A DNA stretch of 64,000 nt, taken from positions 64,015 to 128,014 of the forward strand of contig JACVRA010000057.1 of assembly GCA_019828545.1 (NCBI GenBank). Direction: 5' to 3'. The translations under genes and the position numbers were made by a program. How positions within the stretch are numbered: the stretch's first letter is position 1; every line of letters begins with the position of its first letter. Under the pieces are notes generated by a model. The model worked only from the letters and a program-made list of their open reading frames with translations. It searched no databases and was not told the origin of the DNA. The stretch is from Paracamarosporium sp. OC-R06-R3. Its lineage: Eukaryota; Ascomycota; Dothideomycetes; Pleosporales; Didymosphaeriaceae. This document shows, piece after piece, positions 8,221-60,793 of this stretch.

Positions 8221-10199
8221 GCCCAAAAGAACAGAAGAGCGATGTCAAAAGTAGATTGACAGTGTCCAGAACGAAGTTGTGGTACAAGTTATGGTTAAGA
8301 TGTTGAAAGCTTTATGGATCAAGGAAGTGAGCCAATGGATTTAGATGTAGAAGTTCAGATTGTGGGTATGGCATTACTGTGGAGAGCAGACAACCGTGTC
8401 GGATCACGGCAGCAGAGTCACGGTATTCACGATGTAGAGAATTGCATGACGGCATGAACAACGATGTATAATTTCAATGTAATATCATAAAAAAGAAATA
8501 CTCTTTCTTATGTAGCATCAAGGAGAAAGACACAGTGATGAAGAGAAAGTGACAATATGACGATATCCTGGTGTCAAACGGAAACGGCATATCAACAACA
8601 GGGGCCACCTGCCGACTGTGAGGATTCTGGAACCTACTAGACACATGAGATTTAGGTATACATAATATGAGTACGCTATATTTAGACAAGAATAGACGAC
8701 ATATGTTCAACCCATGTTGGCAAAACAATTGTTTTTGGCACATCCGCGTTTCTAGAGGCATTTGGGATCTTCCCTAAGAGACACGTAGCTGATTCCCAAG
8801 TTCCTTGTGTGTACTCTACAAAGACACGTATGCTCATACTCTACACTATCAATATCGGAGAGCGAGCGAAGCACGTCTGAAAAAAAGAACGCGAGCATTT
8901 ATTCATCTAACTTCAAGCTCAAAAGCTTACACACAATGTACAAACAGCAACTTCGCCGTCCTCGACAAAAACTTTAACTGATTCTCCTCTAGCTTTGCGA
9001 GCTCAACCATACAGTGCTTGTAGGGGATCGCGGGTGTATTCACGTTCCCATGGCGGTGTACCAACAGTTTTTGATGACAGACGTAATGTTATTTATGTAT
9101 ACCATATAAATCGTTCGAGGTTTAGCCGTGGGTCTTCGAACAATTAATGCGAAATCTCAAGACAGTTCGTACAGGCACATAAGGCGAGATGTACGTGACC
9201 TGGTTTCAACAGGGGCAATCCACATTTGGTCATGGATCTTTGAGTAGGTAGTTTGGGTGTGTGATTTTCGTATTGAGGCTAACCCGGCACATACGACTTG
9301 GAAATGGTGCTACAAAGTAAACAAAACGACAATGACAGACTTCTATGTCTTTGTTTCCTGGAAAAGAGAGCAAGGATTGCGTCATGATAAAGGTTTATAT
9401 TGAGCGTACACGGAAATCTCCATAATTCATCTTCCGACATTGTTTGGTGTCAACGTATCTGGGAAGTGGGCTCATAAATAAAAAGAGACACACGATGAGG
9501 ATACCGAAGCGGCATGTAGGTATCCAGGCCACGAAATCAAGTCCGCATGTTTTAGGATTGGAATAATTTGATAGATCCATTTCTATCCGCATAGCCTTCT
9601 ACTCCGCTCTGCTCGCGTGCATTTGAATGTTTAAGCGAGAGAAAAAAGCGCGTACTTTCGTGGCTTCCGAACTTTTACAACCGGCAAGGCAAGCAACTCA
9701 TTCTCACAACGCGCCGGTCCGCCGAGAGATGGTGCAAGTGATTGCACCCAGCTTACATCTAGACGATTTGGAGCTGGTTAGTCGTCCGCAACGCAAACAC
9801 ACACATGTATACCGGGGTTTGGATCTAGATGGCGGTGCTTTTGGAACTGGGACCGACGACAAGAAGCATTGTTGAACTCGAATTTTGTTTCCGGAAGCAA
9901 GTGTGGAGAGATTCCACTCCAGGACCCGGACACATATCGTTTTGGCATCGAAATGTTTGGAGGCGCTCACCGACGCTCATAACGATCATTTAGGCCAAAA
10001 CAAAAAAAGAACCCCATGACCATTCATAATAATGATTTTAGTAGCAAATTGCTAGAAAGTGACGTTCCGTGGCCTGTAACAGCGAGCAAGAACGACCGCT
10101 TATATAGACAAACACTAGCTGAACCTTGACGCGACGACGCACTCTAACTTAAAAAAAAAAGCCCCAAAGCCACTCACACCCCATCACCGATTGATCTCC
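8221..10199. other. Gene-poor intergenic region, about 2 kb
   Basis: No supportable gene on either strand: open frames are under 100 codons, overlap one another and have no splice partners. No tRNA, tandem repeat or transposon end was recognised. It holds the 3' flanks of the converging genes at 8220 (plus) and 10200 (minus). Composition is mixed, with A-rich runs around 8880 and 10000-10160. Confidence 0.4.
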
Positions 10200-11275
10200 T
10201 CACCCCCCCTCAACAGCCGCATACGTCCCCTCCCTATTCCGCCTATTTTCCTCCACCCTCCACCTCTCAATATACTCCTCTGTCCCCCCTTCTCCCCCAA
10301 CAAACCCATTATCCTTGCCCGCCACCGGCTCCCCCCACTGCAACCACACAGGCAACACGCCCGTCCAGACACTCCCCCTCAAGCTCTCATCCTTGAGATC
10401 CTTCCTGTCGTCCGAGGGGCCACCAGTGCGTATTTTTGCGGACGCAGAGACGATGCGTACGCGGAGGATGGAGGTGGATTTTAGTTCGGTGGGGGTCGGG
10501 GGGTTGCGCGAGTGCTGCCAGCGGGTGGGGAGGAGGTTGTTCGTTATGTCTGGGGGTGTTATGTTAGGATGGGGATGTGGTGGTGGGGGGAGTCACGTAC
10601 GGGTCATGGCGTAGAGGCGTTCTGCTTCGTCCGTGACGAGGGTTGCGTAGCCGTAGGCGACGGCGGAGCGGTAGTTGCATGAGTTGTCTAGGTTTCAGTT
10701 GGTGAGTTTCTTGTTGTGTGCAGTGGTAGGGTACGTACGGAAGGGAGCCAGTGCGAGGACTAGGCCGTCTATGTGTCTGTAGTTTTTCATCAGCATGCTT
10801 TCTCCTCACATTAGTATCAGTCGAACTCACGATGCTGCAACCGTAACAGGTAGTCCTTCGCCCTCACTATCCTTCCCCTGTCTAAACATCCTCCCACTCA
10901 CGTACCTGATTGGATGTTAGTACACCGCTGATTCTCGTATCACTCAACCAGCATCTCAAGTCACTCACCCATGGATATACACATCCTGCACCGAACTCCC
11001 TGGCCCAGCATCCTGGTCCTCAAACCTCCCCGTGCATCCCAGCATAGGCAGCACGACGGGGAAAGGATGCTCCGGATCGTTGAATGAGACGTGCAGGATG
11101 GGACTAGAATTGATGATGCTATGTACGGTGGCATAGTCGTACGTGCCTGGTGAGATACAACGTAGTCAGTACACATTTACACAGAAAGGGGTGGAAGGGC
11201 AGCAACGAACGGACCTCTCTTCGGTAGGCGTCCCAGCTTGTTGATAGCTGTCTTGGAGTACTCCGGCGTCGCCAT
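10200..11275 (-). CDS. Flavin-nucleotide-binding split-barrel protein (PNPOx-like / NimA-like)
   Basis: Six exons on the minus strand, 11275-11215, 11146-10969, 10905-10831, 10776-10739, 10687-10601 and 10549-10200, give 262 aa. Introns are 51-68 nt with GTCCGT, GTGAGT, GTGAGT, GTACGT and GTACGT donors and phases that join without stops. The reconstructed protein runs TYDYATVHSIINSS, HVSFNDPEHPFPVVLPM, then HIDGLVLALAPF-HNCNYRSAVAYGYA and TNNLLPTRW. These are the hallmarks of the fungal FMN-binding split-barrel family related to pyridoxamine-phosphate oxidase and nitroimidazole reductase. It likely binds FMN and acts as a cytosolic reductase or detoxification protein; the substrate is unknown. 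The C-terminal 60 residues are Gly/Glu/Arg-rich. Confidence 0.85.
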
Positions 11276-49149: not shown

Positions 49150-52100
49150 GTCTCCAACCAGCGCACAGCGATCCCGCTTCTGATATCCTTTCCCACGTAT
49201 GTCCCGGGTCTTCCCTACGGTATTTCTTTGTTTGCATCTGCGGGGAGATTGTTTTGAAATGCGCGGGTGTTGTACCAATGGAGATAACATGGCTGGTCGC
49301 GAGCACGGGCACATCCTCTTCACGACAATGCTTCCATAGGATCGCAGCCCTTCATACTCCCAGGATGCTCCTCGCGGCCCGCGATGCATCAATTCTCTGT
49401 CAAAGTTTATCTGAACATGAGGGGTAGTGTACCTGTGGAGATATGCTCCTGAGATAGATTGTACAATTTTAATGTGTCAACCCCAACAACGATATCTCTA
49501 CAGAATCACGGCCCCTGGTACTTCCGGGAGACCCCCTGTATCCCTTTACGCCTCGATTTACTTGTAAAGTTTATCTCGATATTGAGGATAGCGTGGGTGT
49601 TCAGTAAGCTCCTACGATACCTTGTCATACAATCTTAGTGTGCGCAACACCGATAACTCTATCATGTCACATTCCCTTATACTCTGAGAAGACTCCCTGT
49701 AGCTTTTGAGATCTTCGCTATCTCTCAAGATGTATTTCAAAAGCACGGGATAGTATAGTCTAGAAATATTCTCGGGAGAACTTTGTCATACCATTCCAGT
49801 GGGCATAACGCCAACGACGATATCTTTGTTATACCGCAGCCCCTAATACTCCCAGGACACTCCTTGTGATCCTCCACCTGCTGGGTATGTTTAAGAAAAT
49901 GTCGCAAAGGCACGGGGCGATGCAATTGGGGTATTTGTTCAACAGTACTTTGTCTTATAACTTTGGCCTGCACAACGCCAACGACGATATCTCAATCACA
50001 TCGCAACCCCTAATACTTCCGGAGGCACCCCTATGATCCTTGGGCTTCTGAATATCCTTTTGTATGTATTTTAAAAGCGCGGAGTAGCGTATAAAGGGGA
50101 TATGTTTGAGAGCTTTCTGCCGTATACTTTTGGCGTGCACAGCGCCAACGACGACATCTTTATCATATCACAACCCCTGATACTTCCGGGGGCTTCCTTA
50201 TAATCCTTAATATGTTTACCAGGTTCCAGAAACGTCACAAAAGCACGGGACAGTGCGATCAATGAGATACGCGCAAGGGTACTTTGCCATACAGTCTTGG
50301 TGTGCATAACACCAACGACGATATCTCCATGGAACTGCGACCTCCGATACTTCCAGAAGTCTCCCTGAGACCACTCGTATCTTATGTATCTAGTAGGATT
50401 TGTTGAAAAGGCACGGAGTGGTGTTTCGTAAACATATACAGTGTCGTACAATTTTGGTGTGCACAATAGCACCAACAATATTTCTGTCAAATCGCGACCC
50501 CTGATATTTCCGGTCTCCTTGTATCCCGTGTGCTCTGAGGGCTACTACGAGCTTTATTCTAAACTCTGGGGTAGCGTAGTTGTCAACATCGTCGTGATCA
50601 AATTCTACTATGCAGTTTTAGTGTACACAACAACGCCAACAATGTCTATACCAAATCGCGGTCCTTAATACTTCCGGGACTCTCCCTGTAATCCGTATAC
50701 TCTGCGGATTATCACAAACTTTATTCTAATTGCTAGGGTAGCGTACTCATTAACATTGTCGTGGTCGAATTCTGCCATACAAATTTAGTGTGCACAACAA
50801 CGCCAACGATATCTTAGTCAAATCATAGCCCCTGATATTTCCGAGGGTATCCCTGTAACCCGTCAGCTCTACAGATTACTATGGCCTTTACTTTACACGT
50901 GCGGGGAACGTAGCCGCTAATATTACCATGATCAGATTCTGCCATACAAATTGATGTGCACAACAACACCAATGATATCTTAGTCAAATCATAGCCCCTG
51001 ATATTTCCGAGGGTATCCCTGTGACCCGTCAGCTCTAAGGATTACTACAGGGTTTGTTTTGCACGCGCGGGCAAAGTAGCTGTCAATATTGCTGTGATCA
51101 GATCCTGCCATACAAATCCAGTGCACACAACGTGTGTACAATAGATGGTACTCTCTGATACCTCCGGTTATCTCCTTGTTACCCGTCGGATCCATAGAAT
51201 CTCGGAAATGCCGTGTCGTATGCGCGGGCAGCATAGTCGTTGATACCGCTGTGATCAGATTCTGCCATCTAAATTCTGGTGGGTGGAACGCCAACAACAA
51301 TATCCACACAGGATTACATTCCCTCATACTTCCGGAGGTCTCCTTATTACCCGTCCGCTCTACAGATCAATAGGAAGTTTGTTTGAAACGCGCGGATAAC
51401 ATATTCGTGATAATCCCTATCCCATAATTTTGATAGGCATAATTGCGACGACGATATCCTTACAGAGTCACTTCCCCTCATACTTCCGGAAGCTCCCTCA
51501 TCTCCCGCTAGCTCTTCGAATTACTTCAGACTTTGTTTGAAACGCAAGGATAATGTAATCGTTGTGATTTATATTCTCTATCTTTCAATGTTAGTCGGCA
51601 TGACTGCGACGACAATATCTCTACAGGATCGTATCCCCTGATGCTTCCGGAAACCTCCTTGTTACCCACCAGCTCTACGGTTTACTACCGAATTTGTTTA
51701 AATCGTGAGGACAACGTATTTGTTGTGATTTGTGATGGCTCGCAATTTTGGTGATATGACGGCGACGATATTATCTTTACAACATCGCATTCCCTGATAC
51801 TTCCGGAAGTCTCCCTCTGTTCCGGCGGCTCCATAGATGACCGCATACTGTAATTCATGCGAGCGGGCAATGTAATTGTCAATATCGTTGTAATGGTATC
51901 TTGCCATACAATCTTGGTGGGCAGAATATCAATGACAATATCTTCACATCCCCTAACACTTCCGGGCATTTCCCTGTGGCCCGATGCTTTCCTCTGTTAT
52001 CATGAGCTTTGTTTTCTACTCGCGGAAAATGTAGTCGTGAATATTGCTGTCACCGTATTCTACAAGGCATGTTAGATAAGATACTATTGATGACAACACC

Positions 52101-55100
52101 TCTACATCTCCTGACACTTCCCAGTGTTTCCCTGTGTTCCGAGGCACTCTTCCGTTATCGTGAGCATTGTTTTATACGCCCGGGCGACGTAATCGTCTAC
52201 CAGGCAATGTCGGATACGACACCAACAATAAGAATTTCACAGGATCGTAGCCCGCTGGTGCTTTAGGAGTCTCCCTGTGACCCGCAAGCCCTGTAGATTA
52301 TCCTGAACTACTTTTCATACGAGCGGGTGACGTGGTCGTCGCTCGCGATGTGATCGTACGCCGCCACATTCTTGGTATGCACAACTGGTGTACAACCCAG
52401 CAACAACATCCACGCATGCCGCGAAGTCCCGAAGTTTCCGGCCGACCAAAGGAAGTCTGCGGACAATGAGGGAACAACAAGGAGCGTAAAATTGGACGTG
52501 TTGGTAGGTGTACAGACAATGAGCGGTGTTTGGCTCACCCGGGGATTGCAAAGCTTTGCAGTACTACGTCCAAAGGTCCCCTTGTAACCCGCTATCTCTA
52601 CGGGTTATCGGGGAGTTTGCTTTGTATACACAGGCGACGTAGCCATCGATGCTGATGCGCTGGTCTTCTACTACATATTCTTGGCGTACAAGCATCAACA
52701 CCCATTCAAAATCCGGCTTCCCTACATGCCTCCGGTAATATCCCATGATTCCGGCGGGACTGCGGGTTATCGGGAATGTTCATTCGTATGCGCGGGGTAA
52801 CGTTTGACGATGCTGGTATACTAGCCGTCTGCCACATACTTTTGGTGTGCAAGCATCAATGCCCATCCCCAATCTGGCTTCCCCATATACTCTAGATAGT
52901 AGTCCGGGGTTGTGGAGTGATGACGGGTTATCGGGACGGTACTCTGCACACTTGGGGGGATGATCGACCATAGTGGCATTTTGTCACGTGTTCTTAGTGT
53001 ACAAAGTACCAACACTCCCCCTTCCTTAATCCGGCTTCCCCACGTGCTCCCGGTAGTATCCCCTGATACCGGAGAGACTGCGGGTCATTAGGGTGTTATT
53101 CAAAATATGTGGGCGTGAGAGAACAATAAGACAATACTAGCCCTATCTTCGTGCACATATTAACACCCCGTAAAAACTTCCCCACACTTTCCCACATACT
53201 TCCGGGAGTAGCATATTGCTCAAGATGGTCCACAGGATATTGGGAATACTCTGTACACGTAGCGGAGCAACTAATCGAAAATCTGGCACTCAACTATATA
53301 TTCTCAGCGTACAAAGTATCAACACTCGCCCTTCTTTAACCTAGCTTCCCCGCGTGTTTCTGGTAGTATCCCCTGATACCGGGAAGATTGCGGATCATCA
53401 GGAATCTATTCAAAATACATGGGTGTAAGAGAACAATTGACAATACTTAGCTTCTGCTACATGTTCTTGGTGTATAAGCTGCATCAACACCCACCAAGAA
53501 TTTAGCTTGCCCACATGCTCCCAGTAGTACCCCCTTATTCCGGAGGGTCCAATGGCCATCAGGGCTGTTCTGTACACGTGGGGGATAATCGATAATACTG
53601 GGACTCTGTCACAAATTCTTGGTGTGCAAGCATGAACACTCACCCTAAACCAGACTTCCCCACACAGTTCCTGTAATACCCGGTAATTCCGGGGTAACTG
53701 TCTGGTATAGAGAAACTTTGTTTTAGGGGGAATAGTTGACGATGCTCGTGTGCTGGCCTTTGCTAAATATTCTTAGTGTACAAGTATCATCACCTACCTT
53801 CCTCTGATGTCGCTTCCCCATAAGCTCCTGGTAGTACCCTCTGATTTCAAAGAAAGCATGTGATATCGGGAATTTCGTTTTGTACACTCGGGGGAACGAT
53901 TGACGATACCGGCCATGTTGTACAGGTATCTACACTCACCCTTCTCCGACCTCGCTTCCCCGCGCTTCCCCACCTGTTTCCGGCAGTCCCCCACGATGCC
54001 GGAGGGAATTTGAGCTATCAGGAATCTTACTATGTGCACGCGGAGTGAACTGTCGTTGGTGCCGATGTGCTGGCGTAGGTACGTTACCAACACCCACCGT
54101 TCTCCCACCATTCTTGAACCTAGCTTCCCCACATACTTCTTGTGGTCCCCCTTAGTACTAGAGTAGGTACGGGGCAGTCTGCGATGTGTTTTATGCGCGC
54201 GGGGAGGACAATCGTCGATCCCGATATGTTGGTCTTCTGTCACACAGTATTGGTGTGTACAGTATTGACCCTCACTGACACTCGCCCTTCTTAAACCTGG
54301 CTTCCCCAAACATTTCCGGTAGTCTACAGATACCGGAGTTGCTACGGGTAGACCTTCGCTTTGTTTTATACACTTGGGGGAAACGCTCACCCACGCTCAC
54401 CTTTCTCACACCCACCCTTCATGAGCCTGGCTTTCCCGTATGATTCCGGCGGTCTCCCTCAACACCGGAGAAGCTACGGGCTGGCATGCATTTTGTTTTA
54501 TGTTATCGGACGGCATACTCGTTGATATCGGTGTGCTGCTAGTTTGCCATACATTCTTAGCGTGCACAGTATAAACGCCTCCCCTTCATAAACCTGACTC
54601 CCCCACGTACTCCCGGTAGTCTCCCCTGATTCCAGAGCAGTCACGGTTTAGCCCATGATTTCCCTTAGGCAAAGGTTTACATGTTGCTCTACCATACAAT
54701 TTTGGTGCGCACAGTATCCCTCCCTCGCCCCCCGCCCTTCCCACTTGACTGCCCCTCATACCTCCGATAGTCTCCCCTAATACTAGAGTAACTACGGGTT
54801 AGTTTTTGGTTTACTTCAGACGAGCGGGCTACGTGTTGGTGGGAATACTTTTACAAATATCCTTCTTGGCGCGCACGGTATTAACATCCTCCCCTTTCCT
54901 ACCTGGCCTCCCCTCATATCTCCGGTACTCTCCCTTAATAGCAGAGTACCTATGGGTCATCGTATGGTTTGACTTAGGTAAGCGGGCCACGTGTTGGTGG
55001 AAATACGTTTATAGGTGTCCTTTCTATATAATTTTGGTGCGCACCGTATCAACACACCCCCTCTTCCCGCCTGGCTTCCCCTTGTCTTCGCACTAATATC

Positions 55101-56650
55101 CCATTAAACCGCGATAACTACGGGTTAATCCGTGTTCATTCTCAAGCGAGCGGGTCATGTATTGATTGAGATACTTCCAACCATATTCTACCATAGTATT
55201 TTGGTGGGGAAGGTATCAACACTCACCCTTCTTTAAATTCACTTCCCTACATACTCCGGACAGTATCCCCCAACTTTGGGGTGTCTACGGGTTAACTTGC
55301 GGTGTTTCTTGACCAAGGGGGCGATGTTGTTGTTGACGTTGTATTATACCACGCAATTTCGGGGTCACCTACCCCTCCACAGTCTCGCTTTCCCACATAT
55401 TATTACTTGCATCCCATTAGCCCGTAATGCCTACGGATCAACATGTGGTATATCTCGGGCGAGCGGGTTATGTATCGATGGAGATACTTTCAGCGATATT
55501 TTGCTATACAATTTGTGCACAGTACTGACAGTCACCTTTCTCCAATCTCGCATTACTACAAACCCCTAATAACATCCCTTGAAGCCGCAACAGCTGCGGG
55601 TTAATCTGCAGTGTAACGTATGTCGGCGGGGTGTGTATTGGTGGAGATATTTTCAGCGATATTTTGCTATACAATTTGTGCACAGTACTGACAGCCACCT
55701 TTTTCCAACCTCGCTTTGCTACAGACTCTTAATAATATCCTTTGAAGCCGCAATGCCTACGGATCAATCTGTGTTACATCTTAGGCCAGCGGGTCGTGTA
55801 TTGATGGAGATACTGTTAGTAATATTTTGCCATACAACATGTGCATGATACCAGCACCTACCTTTCTCCAGCCTCACTTTACCGCATGATTCTTCCGGTA
55901 TCCCCTGAAATATCGGTGCCTACGGGTTAACTCGCGCTTTGTCTTAGGTGGTGGGGACACGTAACCGTAGAGAAACCGTAGAGACAGTTGGTGTACAATC
56001 TTGGTGGTGGACGGGGAACCTCACGTAGTCCGGCACCATTCCGGAGGCGCTAACGTACTCCGCTAGGTCTAGGAGAAATATCCCATCTTATCTGAAATGA
56101 AGGGGCCACGTAATGGTGGAGATGATGGATGAGAGATGGTACCATACAATTGAGGTGGATGTAAAACACGAGTCCGGCACCCTTCCGGAGCTACCATCAT
56201 ACTCCGCTGGGCTTAGGAGCTATATCGCATCTTATCTGGAATGAGGGGGCCACATAGTGGTGGAGATAACAGCAGAGAGATTCTACCATACAAATTAGGC
56301 GGACGTGGAACCTCGTAGCACGCAAAGACCTACACGCCTCCCGTAGTCTTAATTTACTCCGCAGGGGTTAAAAAGCACATTACACTTTACCTAGGATACA
56401 GGGGCCGCGTAATGGTGGAGCTAGCAGAAGAGAGATTATGCTATACAAATTAGGTGGACATGGAACCTCACGGCACATGAAGCCCAGCGCACTTCCAGAG
56501 GTGCCAATAGATTATTTGGAGGCCGAGAAAGAGATTACATTTTATCCGGCATACTTGGATCAAGTAATGGTGGAGCTAACTTGGTGGAGATACTTTGGTG
56601 GGCAGCTCAGCAATCCCTTCTGCCTCCCAATATCGAAGCCCTGAGCTTTT
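49150..56650. repeat. Diverged tandem (satellite-like) array, period about 160-167 bp, about 45 units
   Basis: The whole 7.5 kb is built from one repeating pattern. Each unit contains a block like CTTCCGGNAGTCTCCCTG, then CTACGGGTTA, then TTTGTTT with a CGCGGG run, then a core like CCATACAATTTTGGTGTG, then CAACGCCAACGACGATATC. GATATC-type anchors fall at 49491, 49652, 49819, 49986, 50153, 50320, 50808, 50974, 51300, 51453 and 51614, steps of 153-167 or simple multiples. From 52.7 kb CTTCCCC anchors continue at 52717, 52878 and 53035, then with more varied steps to about 55870. Neighbouring units are usually far from identical; 55493 and 55657 start two unusually similar units. Three zones grade into each other: 49.1-52.3, 52.6-55.9 and 55.9-56.65 kb. 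There is no open frame longer than about 200 codons and no transposon domain. Confidence 0.9.
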
Positions 56651-58665
56651 CCGTAACCACTATCACGACCTCGGACAGTGGCAGAAACAGCAGCATCGGC
56701 TGCGAGATAGCGGGCACATTGACCATGGAGATTTGCACGCAGATACCCTAGCGCACAGTTTCGGTGAGGGGCATATCACGCCCACCATTTGCGGCACTGA
56801 CTCCGGCTAAAGATTTCACTCCATTGAACCATGATGGGCCGTTTCACAAGAGATCTTGCCATAGGGAAGCACAATGGTGAAGTTAAGTCGTGGAATCTTG
56901 ACGTGCATGTTCTGCCACCTGCATTGCTTTTAAGATTTTCGCTTCCCGGTGGCTTGCTTTGCGTTGAGTATTGCTTTGGATATTTCGCCGGAGCCAAATG
57001 ATCCACGTTTGGAGTTTGCGGAAAGCGTCGATGTGGAGATGTCTTGTTGCATACAAATGGTGCTATACATGGGTGCTTTATATTGCAACATACGAGAGCA
57101 TATCTATTGCAGAAGGCACAACAAAACAGCTTCAGCTTCATGGCGACGAGCAAATGAGTTGACGTCTTAAAGTGTACCCATGCATGTCAGGATGGCCGGA
57201 GTTGGCGAGGATGCTCACCTTTAGTTTGCGGCTCTTTCAATTCATCGGAAACTTCCCCGACAGTTTGCTCGTAGATTCCAACACGACAAGACACAATCCC
57301 AGTGGGGGATTCCCTATAACGTCTAGGTTGAAGCACAAAATGAAATTTAATGAAATGGCAGAATGGTGCAGGATTCATATACACTGTAGGATTACAGCCA
57401 TCTGTGATAATTCCGCGAAGGTGTGATTGTGTGCGTGCTATTGCTACTTCTAAAATGTTGACACCTCTTGCTATTTCTCATCACCACGAGAGTCTAGATG
57501 TAGAAAACTAAATGATATGCGAGCATGCGGGGTTCCGTCCACAGGTATGGGAAAAGGGCAGTCTAGAAGTCTCAAGGGGCGGAGGATCGATATCAAAATT
57601 CCTGAAGTCAGCGCCGCACAGGCCGTTTTGCGCTATTAAGCAAAGTTTATTTGGAAGGCTGCGGGGGCGAAAGCGGGACGACACACGGGACAAGCTTTTA
57701 GTATCGATGACGGAGATCAGCTATTTCCCGATTACGTTCTCAAGCAATAAACAAGTCCGTCAGTTAAGGCATCTATGCACATTAGTTCCTGGTCATGGAA
57801 TGGTGGAAACACGCTGTTCATCATTACTTGATGGAGCTTGATATTTGTGTAACACCAGAACAAGAAAATTTGATCGCTCGATCAAGGAAGCACAGTCAGC
57901 CCGCTTGTGTAACCACAATGTTTTGTTTGCTTTTGACGATGACTCGTTGGAAGAAACTGCACGGACCGCAATGGGAACCATCGTTCTGTCGGCTTTCCCG
58001 TCCCTTCACCGCTGCCGTATCGCAGCCATTATCAACATTCGGAAACCGCATTAACGAAATCAATTTTCACATGTCTCCTTCGCATTGGAGTAGTCCATTC
58101 TTCTTTGACGATATTTACTATGTGATATTCAAGGTGTTATAATCTTCGTCTAACCTATCCTCGAAATGCATAGACTCTTCAATCACTTAGGTCGGCGAGC
58201 TGTCAACCAAGATTATTGTTGCCACGCAATCCTGAAGTGGCGGTACGGAGTGTAATACTAGCCAATAGATGCCTTCATACCCACAAGCTGCGTCCTTCCA
58301 GGTCATCTTGGCTAGTGCTTACAGGAACGGTCCTCAGTACACATTGGGATGATTATATTCCCTCCACGGCTCTCTATAGGGCGTCAAAGGAACTTTGATG
58401 TAGACTCTCGTATTTCATCTCCACTCTCATCAAGGCAAATAATGTATCAGCGCCGCCAGACAGTGGCATTGGAATGTTGAGCAGCTTGGCGCTCGTATTG
58501 CTAGGCTTTGGAGCACGTACCTGAAGTGAGACTGTATATAAAGAGCACGCAATCGCCTGTTGTTGATCGTGTACACTGTCTTCTGCATCTGAATAGCTTC
58601 GAGCACAACTGGCTTTTTCATCGATTCATTCAATAGGACCTATTCGTATCCGAACAATTGTCATC
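56651..58665. other. Decayed gene-poor sequence right of the array
   Basis: No intact gene. A protein-like stretch near 56638-56755 (plus, ALSFSVTTITTSDSG...TMEICTQIP) is broken by a TAG and could be a relic or chance. Open frames at 57512-57841 and 57795-58142 overlap and lack domains. The right end is the promoter of the first small secreted protein. Confidence 0.4.
58535..58543 (+). promoter_or_regulatory. TATA box of the 73-aa secreted protein gene
   Basis: TATATAAAG, a perfect TATA box, lies about 123 bp upstream of the ATG at 58666. Strong TATA boxes often mark inducible genes, in line with an effector-like product. Confidence 0.6.
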
Positions 58666-58999
58666 ATGCGCTTCGCCATCGCCATCTTTATGCTCATTGC
58701 AGCCGCTGTTGCTGCTCCTACGCCAGCTGCTGCTCTGGACCCAGCTCCTCCTGCTGGCTCGCCTTGCACCTGTGGTATACGTAAGTTTGTTGTATTATTA
58801 GCTGCATTTGATGGTAGAGTATACTACCTTTTATCCTCGTCGAGATCGCCAGTTACGGCCTGACGATTGTTGCTGACTTCGATGGCCTATAGCACCGGAA
58901 GTTGTCTACAGCAGATGCTTCTCGAACCCAGATGGCACCACTGTCATTTATCTCTGCCAAACATCATGCACCTGGCAGTCTCTTGGTACCGGATGCTAG
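58666..58999 (+). CDS. Small cysteine-rich secreted protein (73 aa), effector-like
   Basis: Exons 58666-58780 and 58893-58999; the 112-nt intron has a GTAAGT donor and a CCTATAG acceptor. An alternative donor (GTATAC, six bases upstream) keeps the frame and would remove two residues. A signal peptide (about 1-17, MRFAIAIFMLIAAAVAA) is followed by a Pro/Ala-rich stretch and a mature domain with six cysteines at residues 34, 36, 47, 60, 64 and 73, the last being the C-terminal residue. The pattern DGTTVIYLCQTSCTW resembles other short fungal secreted proteins, but no named family is claimed. It is extracellular, presumably disulfide-bonded. A second cysteine-rich secreted gene lies 248 bp away in the opposite direction. 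Confidence 0.72.
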
Positions 59000-59247: not shown

Positions 59248-59726
59248 CTATACGCAGTCCGATCCCCCGGGAACAAAAGTCCCGTCCGAGTTCTCGCATC
59301 CGCACTCGCCGTCGTCCGGGTTCTTGATGCACCCTACACCCTCACCCTCGCTCTCTCCGGCGTCGCTCCAGAAGAATGTCCAAGCGTCCGCACTAGCTGT
59401 CATGGAAGTGCCAGGCTCACAGTTGTAAGCTTTGCAAGTACCGTATGGTGCACCATTGACGTTGTCATACTGGTGGTCGGTCGTAAAGACGGCAAAGGTT
59501 TGCTTGCTGGTGCGGGTGTTGTGGGAACATTCTGCAGCCTGGATGGCATTCGATGTCTTTACGGCTATCGAGTCATTAGCGCATGGTGCGTAGTAGAAGT
59601 GTGATATTTACGTGAACAGCTAGGGCTGCTGGGGTATTTTCCTTTGGTGTTCGTGTCAGCCGGATCGAGCGTTGCGGTAACGCTGGCGGCCAAAGCCAAC
59701 AATGCAACAAGAGAGAAGCTGCGCAT
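59248..59726 (-). CDS. Small cysteine-rich secreted protein (143 aa), effector-like
   Basis: Exons 59726-59612 and 59564-59248 (minus); the 47-nt intron has a GTAAAT donor, a GCTAATG branch-like site and a GATAG acceptor. A signal peptide (about 1-18, ending SVTA) is followed by a mature protein with eight cysteines at residues 37, 51, 82, 87, 117, 126, 128 and 142. Blocks include NGAPYGTCKAYNCEPG, ADAWTFFWSDAGESEGEG, VGCIKNPDDGECGCENSDG and TFVPGGSDCV. The even Cys number and clean frame across the intron support a real gene. I recall similar CGCxxSxGTF-ending small secreted proteins in Dothideomycetes but cannot name a family. It is extracellular; a host-interaction role is inferred only from size and Cys content. 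A TATA-like CATAAATA (minus, near 59852-59859) sits about 130 bp upstream. Confidence 0.75.
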
Positions 59727-60793
59727 TATGATGATATCAAAGCGATCGAAGCAGAGAGCGTGTACTTGACTATGATCTAGATCAAGTTTGCAGTAGAGCT
59801 AAGCGAGTGGATGGTGAACCGATGGTAACGCATTGCAAGTGATCAGCATTGTATTTATGTATTTCACGTCGAATGATAGCCCCTTTGCATCTAACGTGGT
59901 GCATGGAAATAATCCTCCGAGAACCACTGTCCTGGTTTTTGGGTGCTCCGTGTTGATGAAATGTGGAGTTAGCGTCCTAACAAACGGCCCGCTAGTGACG
60001 TGTTTCAGGCGTTCCGACCGTTTCACGGTTTCACTCTAGACCACACGGACACCTTGACGGTCGAGAACATGTCCTCGAATTTGCGATGAGCGTGCACAAA
60101 TATAAGTCAACTTTGCTTTTGGCGCGTCCATACTGACGCCCGTCCACGACAGCTCATTACGAACCAAGCCGACCATGAAATGCCAGTAGGTTCCGTTGAT
60201 CAACGCAATCATGACAAGGACCATCGATGTGATTGTTGAAAGAGATGCTCATCAGCAGCATGCTTATGATCTCAGTTCGAAACTGGAGTGGATAGATGCA
60301 ATGTAAAATGGGTACGTTCCGTTCCAAACATAACGTGGATCCCTGAATCAACCTGATCTAGTATGATAAACAAATAGCAAAAGACTCGAGATGAGATTCC
60401 TGTTCAGGCTGAGGAACTCAAGAATACGAGCGTGGAGACTGACGAAATGCTGCACACGCACCAAGTATGAGGAACATGGATCAAAGCCCATGCGCGAGGT
60501 ATCCTAACAATCTTCCCCCAGCTCGGAAGATATCTAGGGAGGAATAGATTCGAGAAAGTGTGGTTGCGGTAACCAATATCAACCGGTGCGACTTCCTTTA
60601 CCCCGCATTTGAGTAAAAGTGAGTCACTTGCACCTGAGGCCAAGAAGTCGTATTTGAGGCAACAGCTATCTGCAATATGACTGCAGTTCCAGAACCACCT
60701 CTATGCATTTAAGAGGCACTGTAATTCTTTCTGGCCAAGGTTGAAGGCCGCACGACGCGCTCATCTCGACTCCACAGCAATCGAGCCCCAGCA
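59727..60793. promoter_or_regulatory. Divergent promoter region (secreted protein / MFS transporter)
   Basis: 1067 bp between the minus-strand secreted gene and the plus-strand transporter. It carries both promoters: the CATAAATA element near 59855 for the secreted gene, and a weak CATTTAAG near 60706 for the transporter. No gene seen. Confidence 0.45.

What the first reader, a model, noticed from the sequence alone, without database searches (positions are those of the whole stretch)
49150..56650. 7.5-kb diverged tandem array with a near-nucleosomal period
About 45 units of one ancestral sequence repeat every 160-167 bp across 7.5 kb without any gene. Five successive anchor steps in the left third are 167, 167, 167, 167 and 166-167 where measured cleanly, then the register loosens. 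Units share conserved blocks yet differ widely, so this is an old array, not a recent expansion. A period close to fungal nucleosome spacing suggests a phasing or heterochromatin role. I know of no described element of this form in this kind of genome.
Basis: partly seen in the sequence, partly recalled or inferred. Interest (0 to 1): 0.88.

Follow-up and report, generated by a model that had tools for sequence, protein, structure and literature searches.

The report
Old, decayed tandem array in fungus
A 7.3-kb stretch of a fungal chromosome is made of about 45 worn copies of one roughly 160-base sequence, which seems to have grown by copying neighbouring units and then decayed by ordinary mutation; the repeat is real and was found at one place only, but nothing in the sequence supports a nucleosome-spacing or heterochromatin role.

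Summary
A profile finds 44 head-to-tail units on one strand, 49321-56411, one more unit to 56604 and a damaged one at 52366. Unit length is 159 +/- 8.7 bp, often 167 on the left. Searches of the 43-Mb, probably pleosporalean genome find this one locus. The interpretation gets no support. Neighbouring units are 60% identical, distant ones 43-45%, and the tree roughly follows the order: stepwise local duplication. Site rates are fairly even (alpha 6.2) and hardly agree between halves, so most "conserved blocks" are shared ancestry. Length scatter fits neutral indel drift. No helical periodicity, RNA fold or clear coding signal. Transposon copies here carry TAG-type stops of repeat-induced point mutation; the array shows a slight CpA excess only, though its dinucleotide indices lean that way. 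Best reading: an old monomeric-type satellite array, mostly neutral. A few CC/GG positions are slower than simulated, so a weak function is not excluded.

The parts
49296..56604 (+). diverged tandem array, about 45 head-to-tail units
   Evidence: profile hits; autocorrelation
49199..49287 (+). hint of an older unit piece at the left edge, not significant alone (E 2.2)
49296..51267 (+). units 1-12, most regular part, steps 157-167 bp
50777..51109 (+). closest pair of all (units 10 and 11), 85% identical, K2P 0.18
52199..52504 (+). long unit 19 (306 bp): a unit followed by a damaged unit start at 52366 and poorly matching sequence
52986..53458 (+). units 23 and 25, 80% identical across a strongly diverged unit 24; lag-310 signal
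55506..55831 (+). units 39 and 40, 79% identical
55990..56604 (+). right-edge units 42-45, a separate sub-family; first three steps 151, 143 and 153 bp
56720..56785 (+). doubtful further decayed unit piece (E 0.008 with one right-hand profile)

Best explanation
An old, single-locus satellite-type array of the monomeric kind. One roughly 160-bp intergenic sequence was copied head to tail. The array then grew over a long time by duplications of one or two neighbouring units (unequal exchange or replication slippage; inferred). Homogenisation was too weak to keep copies alike, so units drifted apart by ordinary, transition-biased point mutation and small indels. Shown: the units, their order-dependent kinship, the nearly even site rates, the length scatter of neutral drift, a single locus as far as searched. 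Inferred: the exchange mechanism, the age, and that one-unit steps are too short to attract strong repeat-induced point mutation.
For: Identity falls with distance, from 0.602 at lag 1 to 0.43-0.45 at the printed lags 18 to 42. Identity against lag has Spearman -0.569, lowest of 500 permutations -0.135; 25 of 44 units have an adjacent unit as nearest relative and 33 of 44 one within two. The maximum-likelihood tree runs roughly in physical order, and GTR+G alpha is 6.2. Site rates of units 1-20 and 21-41 correlate at rho 0.15 (p 0.054; 162 columns), and at 0.08 (p 0.40) in the 99 columns with the same majority base after removing base means; shifting one half by 3 or 4 columns gives a larger rho, 0.23. 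Unit-length SD is 8.7 against simulated medians of 6.1 and 8.9 at indel/substitution ratios of 0.03 and 0.06; the observed ratio is 0.04 of uncorrected mismatches. No copy found elsewhere; flanks single copy.
Against: Rate variation is small but real: 2 x delta lnL 54.9 and 20 of 164 columns at or above 80% identity, against -1.3 to 5.4 and 2-6 columns in 6 of 6 uniform-rate simulations. CC at 54-55, CC at 75-76 and GG at 127-128 are slow in both halves. The array's RIP index is -0.05, and +0.10 in 52-56 kb, against -0.30 to -0.68 in the other 4-kb blocks. The least diverged pairs (3 below 25%) have ts/tv 3.74 where the fitted model expects about 2. No related genome could be read, so age is untested.
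Confidence: 0.72

Rival explanations
1. Nucleosome-phasing or heterochromatin-nucleating array whose near-nucleosomal period is held by selection.
For: Mean unit of 159 bp and 167-bp steps on the left lie near fungal nucleosome spacing as recalled; tandem arrays can nucleate heterochromatin (recalled).
Against: Unit length varies from 134 to 178 (the 306-bp unit 19 left out) with the scatter of neutral indels; no 10-bp WW periodicity beyond other blocks; no helical spacing of slow sites.
Confidence: 0.08
2. Cluster of protein-binding sites or a regulatory array in which a few short motifs per unit (around the CC and GG positions) are kept while the rest drifts.
For: 20 of 164 columns at or above 80% identity against 2-6 in six simulations; CC, CC and GG pairs slow in both halves; CC kept at 0.74 in majority-CC columns, GG at 0.64, the other ten dinucleotides counted at 0.51-0.60.
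Against: Rates barely agree between halves once base is removed, and shifted columns agree as well or better; C before C shows the lowest C/T exchange by context (0.217 against 0.275-0.309); 11 sites slow in both halves against 6.5 expected.
Confidence: 0.1
3. Array diversified chiefly by repeat-induced point mutation (RIP): each new copy was hit by C-to-T changes until too unlike to be recognised.
For: In-frame stops in 80 DDE_1 matches of this genome are mostly TAG (hand tally 184 TAG, 42 TAA, 6 TGA). Close unit pairs are transition-rich (159 to 56 in six pairs; ts/tv 3.74 in the three pairs below 25% divergence, model about 2). The array's index is shifted towards RIP and exceeds the whole-locus index of 11 of 12 DDE_1 loci, though the central 600 bases of 7 of those 12 are positive, 0.02 to 0.76.
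Against: CpA/TpA exchange is only 1.19 times the other contexts (1.11-1.27), and 0.185 against 0.143-0.160 in the six closest pairs; GC only mildly lowered; a non-reversible model has a worse BIC.
Confidence: 0.07
4. Array of structured noncoding RNA genes or a long RNA with a repeated fold.
For: Two - strand profile hits show a dyad in units 23 and 25; mean folding z of units is a little below that of 43 control pieces.
Against: RNAalifold finds 0 pairs in 44 units; folding z -0.16 and 0.01 on the two strands, 0 of 44 units below -2 on either, control 0.31; no Rfam match at the gathering score, two at E 1.7 and 8 below it.
Confidence: 0.03

Closest known systems
Monomeric alpha satellite of primate pericentromeres (about 171-bp units without higher-order repeats)
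   Same: Head-to-tail units of about nucleosomal length, strongly diverged, without higher-order homogenisation; the paper says that the repeats in such segments show extensive sequence divergence (PMC1994983, passages seen).
   Different: No sequence comparison was made; one 7.3-kb locus inside a gene-bearing contig, not large tracts beside a centromere; no CENP-B box was looked for.
Tandem repeats of ascomycete genomes (e.g. the 2-200-nt repeats surveyed in dermatophytes)
   Same: Tandem units in an ascomycete genome (PMC5502367, abstract start and two passages).
   Different: The passages seen concern repeats in genes, found with Tandem Repeats Finder; here about 45 diverged units without a clear coding signal, mostly missed by that program at its threshold.
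Repeats mutated by RIP in filamentous ascomycetes
   Same: Repeated DNA in a genome whose DDE_1 copies carry TAG-type stops; index shifted in that direction.
   Different: Only a slight CpA excess, although interspersed homology of 36% identity over 500 bp can trigger RIP in Neurospora (PMC4858203, abstract and passages).

Membership tests
Satellite-type tandem array, monomeric kind | head-to-tail units of one ancestry | tested here: met
   44 + strand hits; identity against shuffles
Satellite-type tandem array, monomeric kind | no higher-order homogenised blocks | tested here: met
   best pair 85%; one lag-2 pair (0.80) far above its lag-1 neighbours (0.46, 0.44)
Satellite-type tandem array, monomeric kind | kinship falls with distance along the array (local duplication) | tested here: met
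Satellite-type tandem array, monomeric kind | heterochromatic or pericentromeric location | not testable with these tools
   no chromatin data; mid-contig among genes
Nucleosome-phasing array | unit length held against indel drift | tested here: not met
   SD 8.7, within the range of neutral drift
Nucleosome-phasing array | 10-bp sequence periodicity | tested here: not met
Nucleosome-phasing array | phased nucleosomes in vivo | not testable with these tools
   no MNase data
RIP-mutated repeat | strong C-to-T excess at CpA | tested here: not met
   1.19 times other contexts; six closest pairs; undirected counts only
RIP-mutated repeat | dinucleotide indices shifted towards RIP | tested here: inconclusive
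   TA/AT 0.96, substrate index 1.01, composite -0.05; +0.10 in 52-56 kb; 44 copies of one unit share their composition
Structured RNA array | common fold with covariation | tested here: not met
Coding repeat | open frame, codon-phase rates, indels in threes | tested here: not met
   rates by phase 1.07/0.98/0.99 (SE 0.035), indels of a length divisible by three 25 of 102, stops 0.038-0.042 per codon on the + strand against 0.046 expected
Part of a dispersed mobile element | further copies of array or flanks in the genome, or repeats shared by the flanks | tested here: not met
   (counts are lower bounds); no flank-to-flank match

The most novel reading that the evidence does not exclude
A natural weak-homology array: some 45 units, mostly 43-60% identical, in head-to-tail order, kept for a very long time in a genome with RIP footprints, with three dinucleotides per unit under selection. 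It would act as a protein-bound or homology-paired chromatin element that is recognised without being mutated away.
Probability: 0.09. Interest if true: 0.72.

Novelty: new member of a known kind. Interest (0 to 1): 0.3.

Why it matters
It is a long and old non-coding tandem array in a filamentous fungus, with so little homogenisation that its duplication order can be read from the units. In a genome whose transposons carry RIP-type stops it gives a natural test of which repeats escape that defence. It also shows that a near-nucleosomal period and 'conserved blocks' can come from descent alone.

Tried and rejected
RNA structure: no consensus pairs, no excess stability, no Rfam match at threshold. 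Coding origin: no clear phase signal and no Pfam match in the two longest ORFs of the array, both on the - strand. Mobile element: flanks single copy; within the flanks only short repeats, the longest an inverted pair of 25 nt at 76%; no match between the two flanks. Helical or nucleosomal signal: none; an apparent 10-bp spacing among slow columns did not survive permutation. RIP as the chief cause: rejected on context counts, though dinucleotide indices and young-pair transitions lean that way. Other copies: of 30 loci fetched by a 19-base pattern, 6 lie in the array and 24 elsewhere; in a profile scan of the 37 loci held then, the best match outside the array loci was E 0.003 over 33 bases and the next 0.018, both in loci picked by that pattern. 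Bacterial promoter and terminator patterns were near chance and do not apply to a fungus. Paper searches (listings of 0 to 15 papers) showed no title on such an array in Pleosporales. Passages only were seen of PMC4938642, PMC4858203, PMC1994983, PMC5502367 and PMC2441463; of the rest only listings. PMC4938642's passages gave no repeat-length figure, so fungal nucleosome spacing is recalled.

Full report
What was given.

Where it lies. One protein was used to place it: the MFS transporter at 60.8-62.5 kb is closest to proteins labelled Kalmusia sp. IMI 367209 (76% over 99%) and Karstenula rhodostoma (71% over 93%), then several at 60-64% whose names I recall as mostly Pleosporales. The host is therefore probably a pleosporalean fungus. 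ORFs of genes lie on both sides: a secreted-type ORF at 47.1-47.7 kb without a Pfam match, and the MFS gene.

Repeated 8-mers are 4.2 times the simulated number; controls are 1.0-1.26 times. Autocorrelation z in 14 windows of 1.2 kb in and at the edge of the array was 3.1-19.5. Of 244 windows scanned in all (this window, three 10-kb neighbours, 24 other loci), the best away from the array was 5.5 and their median 3.2. The iterated profile converged on 44 + strand units at E <= 0.01. One more unit lies on the right, a doubtful piece beyond it, and only a non-significant hint on the left. A damaged unit start lies inside unit 19. All units run in one direction: self-BLAST gave 127 + strand hits, the self match included, and no - strand hit at E 1e-3.

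It was found at one place. The whole array, left and right consensus units, and a 19-base pattern were searched in the genome. All matches lie inside the array. The pattern also hits single places elsewhere, near the level of its reversed control (61 and 40 against 46 and 38, array hits included). The tool warns that such counts are lower bounds, and arrays of another unit would not be seen this way.

How it grew. Mean identity is 0.602 at lag 1, 0.568 at lag 2, 0.516 at lag 5, 0.479 at lag 10 and 0.43-0.45 at the printed lags 18 to 42. The permutation test on this is strong. The tree runs roughly along the array. This is the pattern of many successive local duplications, not of one amplification. 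Homogenisation is slight: the best pair is 85% identical and the median adjacent K2P is 0.63. Units 23 and 25 are 80% alike across a very different unit 24, a sign of a two-unit step or a local conversion.

Is it conserved? Among-site rate variation is small (alpha 6.2) but exceeds six uniform-rate simulations with realignment, which were fitted with a faster tree search. In a cross-check by halves, site rates of units 1-20 and 21-41 (units 42-44 left out) correlate at only 0.15 (p 0.054), and at 0.08 after removing base; C columns alone give 0.35 (p 0.086). Shifts of 3 or 4 columns give 0.23, more than the true register. Three dinucleotide positions stay slow in both halves. I read this as mostly neutral decay with a possible weak constraint or a context effect: C before C had the lowest C/T exchange (0.217 against 0.275-0.309).

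Is the period held? Unit lengths scatter with SD 8.7. Neutral indels at 0.03 and 0.06 per substitution give median SDs of 6.1 (4.0-10.4) and 8.9 (6.2-13.5). The observed ratio is 0.04 of uncorrected mismatches, so per true substitution it is lower; at 0.02 the simulated median is 4.9 (2.8-8.8). The observed scatter is not smaller than drift predicts. The 167-bp steps occur among related left units. No 10-bp signal was found in WW dinucleotides (1.36 times the median against 0.81-1.37 in eight 7.2-kb blocks, two of which overlap the array) or in site rates. These tests are weak against a true chromatin role, which only chromatin data can settle.

RIP. In-frame stops in 80 DDE_1 matches were tallied by hand as 184 TAG, 42 TAA and 6 TGA, the footprint expected of C-to-T change at CpA. 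Seven cytosine-methyltransferase-type matches were found. In the array, CpA/TpA exchange is only 1.19 times the other contexts, and in the six closest pairs 0.185 against 0.143-0.160. Against this, the array's composite index is -0.05, and +0.10 in 52-56 kb, against -0.30 to -0.68 in the other 4-kb blocks. That is above the whole-locus index of 11 of 12 DDE_1 loci, of which 7 are positive in their central 600 bases. The three pairs below 25% divergence have ts/tv 3.74 where the fitted model expects about 2. My reading: light or old RIP at most. In Neurospora, interspersed homology of 36% identity over 500 bp can be detected (PMC4858203, abstract and passages), so the lack of strong RIP here is of some interest, but the species differ.

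Not a structured RNA, no clear sign of a protein, not a dispersed element as far as searched.

Verdict. A real, old, single-locus monomeric-type satellite array. The listed paper searches showed no description of it; the kind is known. Interest 0.3.

Noticed in passing
genome-wide, loci L058-L069 and 68 further matches: DDE_1 transposase copies carry in-frame stops that are mostly TAG (hand tally 184 TAG, 42 TAA, 6 TGA), a RIP-type footprint.
   Followed up: partly
58597-58863 + and 59248-59607 - with 59565-59798 -: Small ORFs right of the array: two contain a start followed by a signal-peptide-like stretch (my reading), and the - strand piece 59248-59607 is rich in cysteine; the two - strand ORFs may be exons of one gene.
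   Followed up: no
9600-10800: Weak autocorrelation at lag 55 (z 5.5), the strongest outside the array among the windows scanned.
   Followed up: no
52986-53458: Units 23 and 25 each contain a quasi-palindrome of about 77 bp that the profile matches on the opposite strand.
   Followed up: partly
52366-52565: Damaged unit whose sequence after the first 33 bases is not matched by the unit profile.
   Followed up: partly
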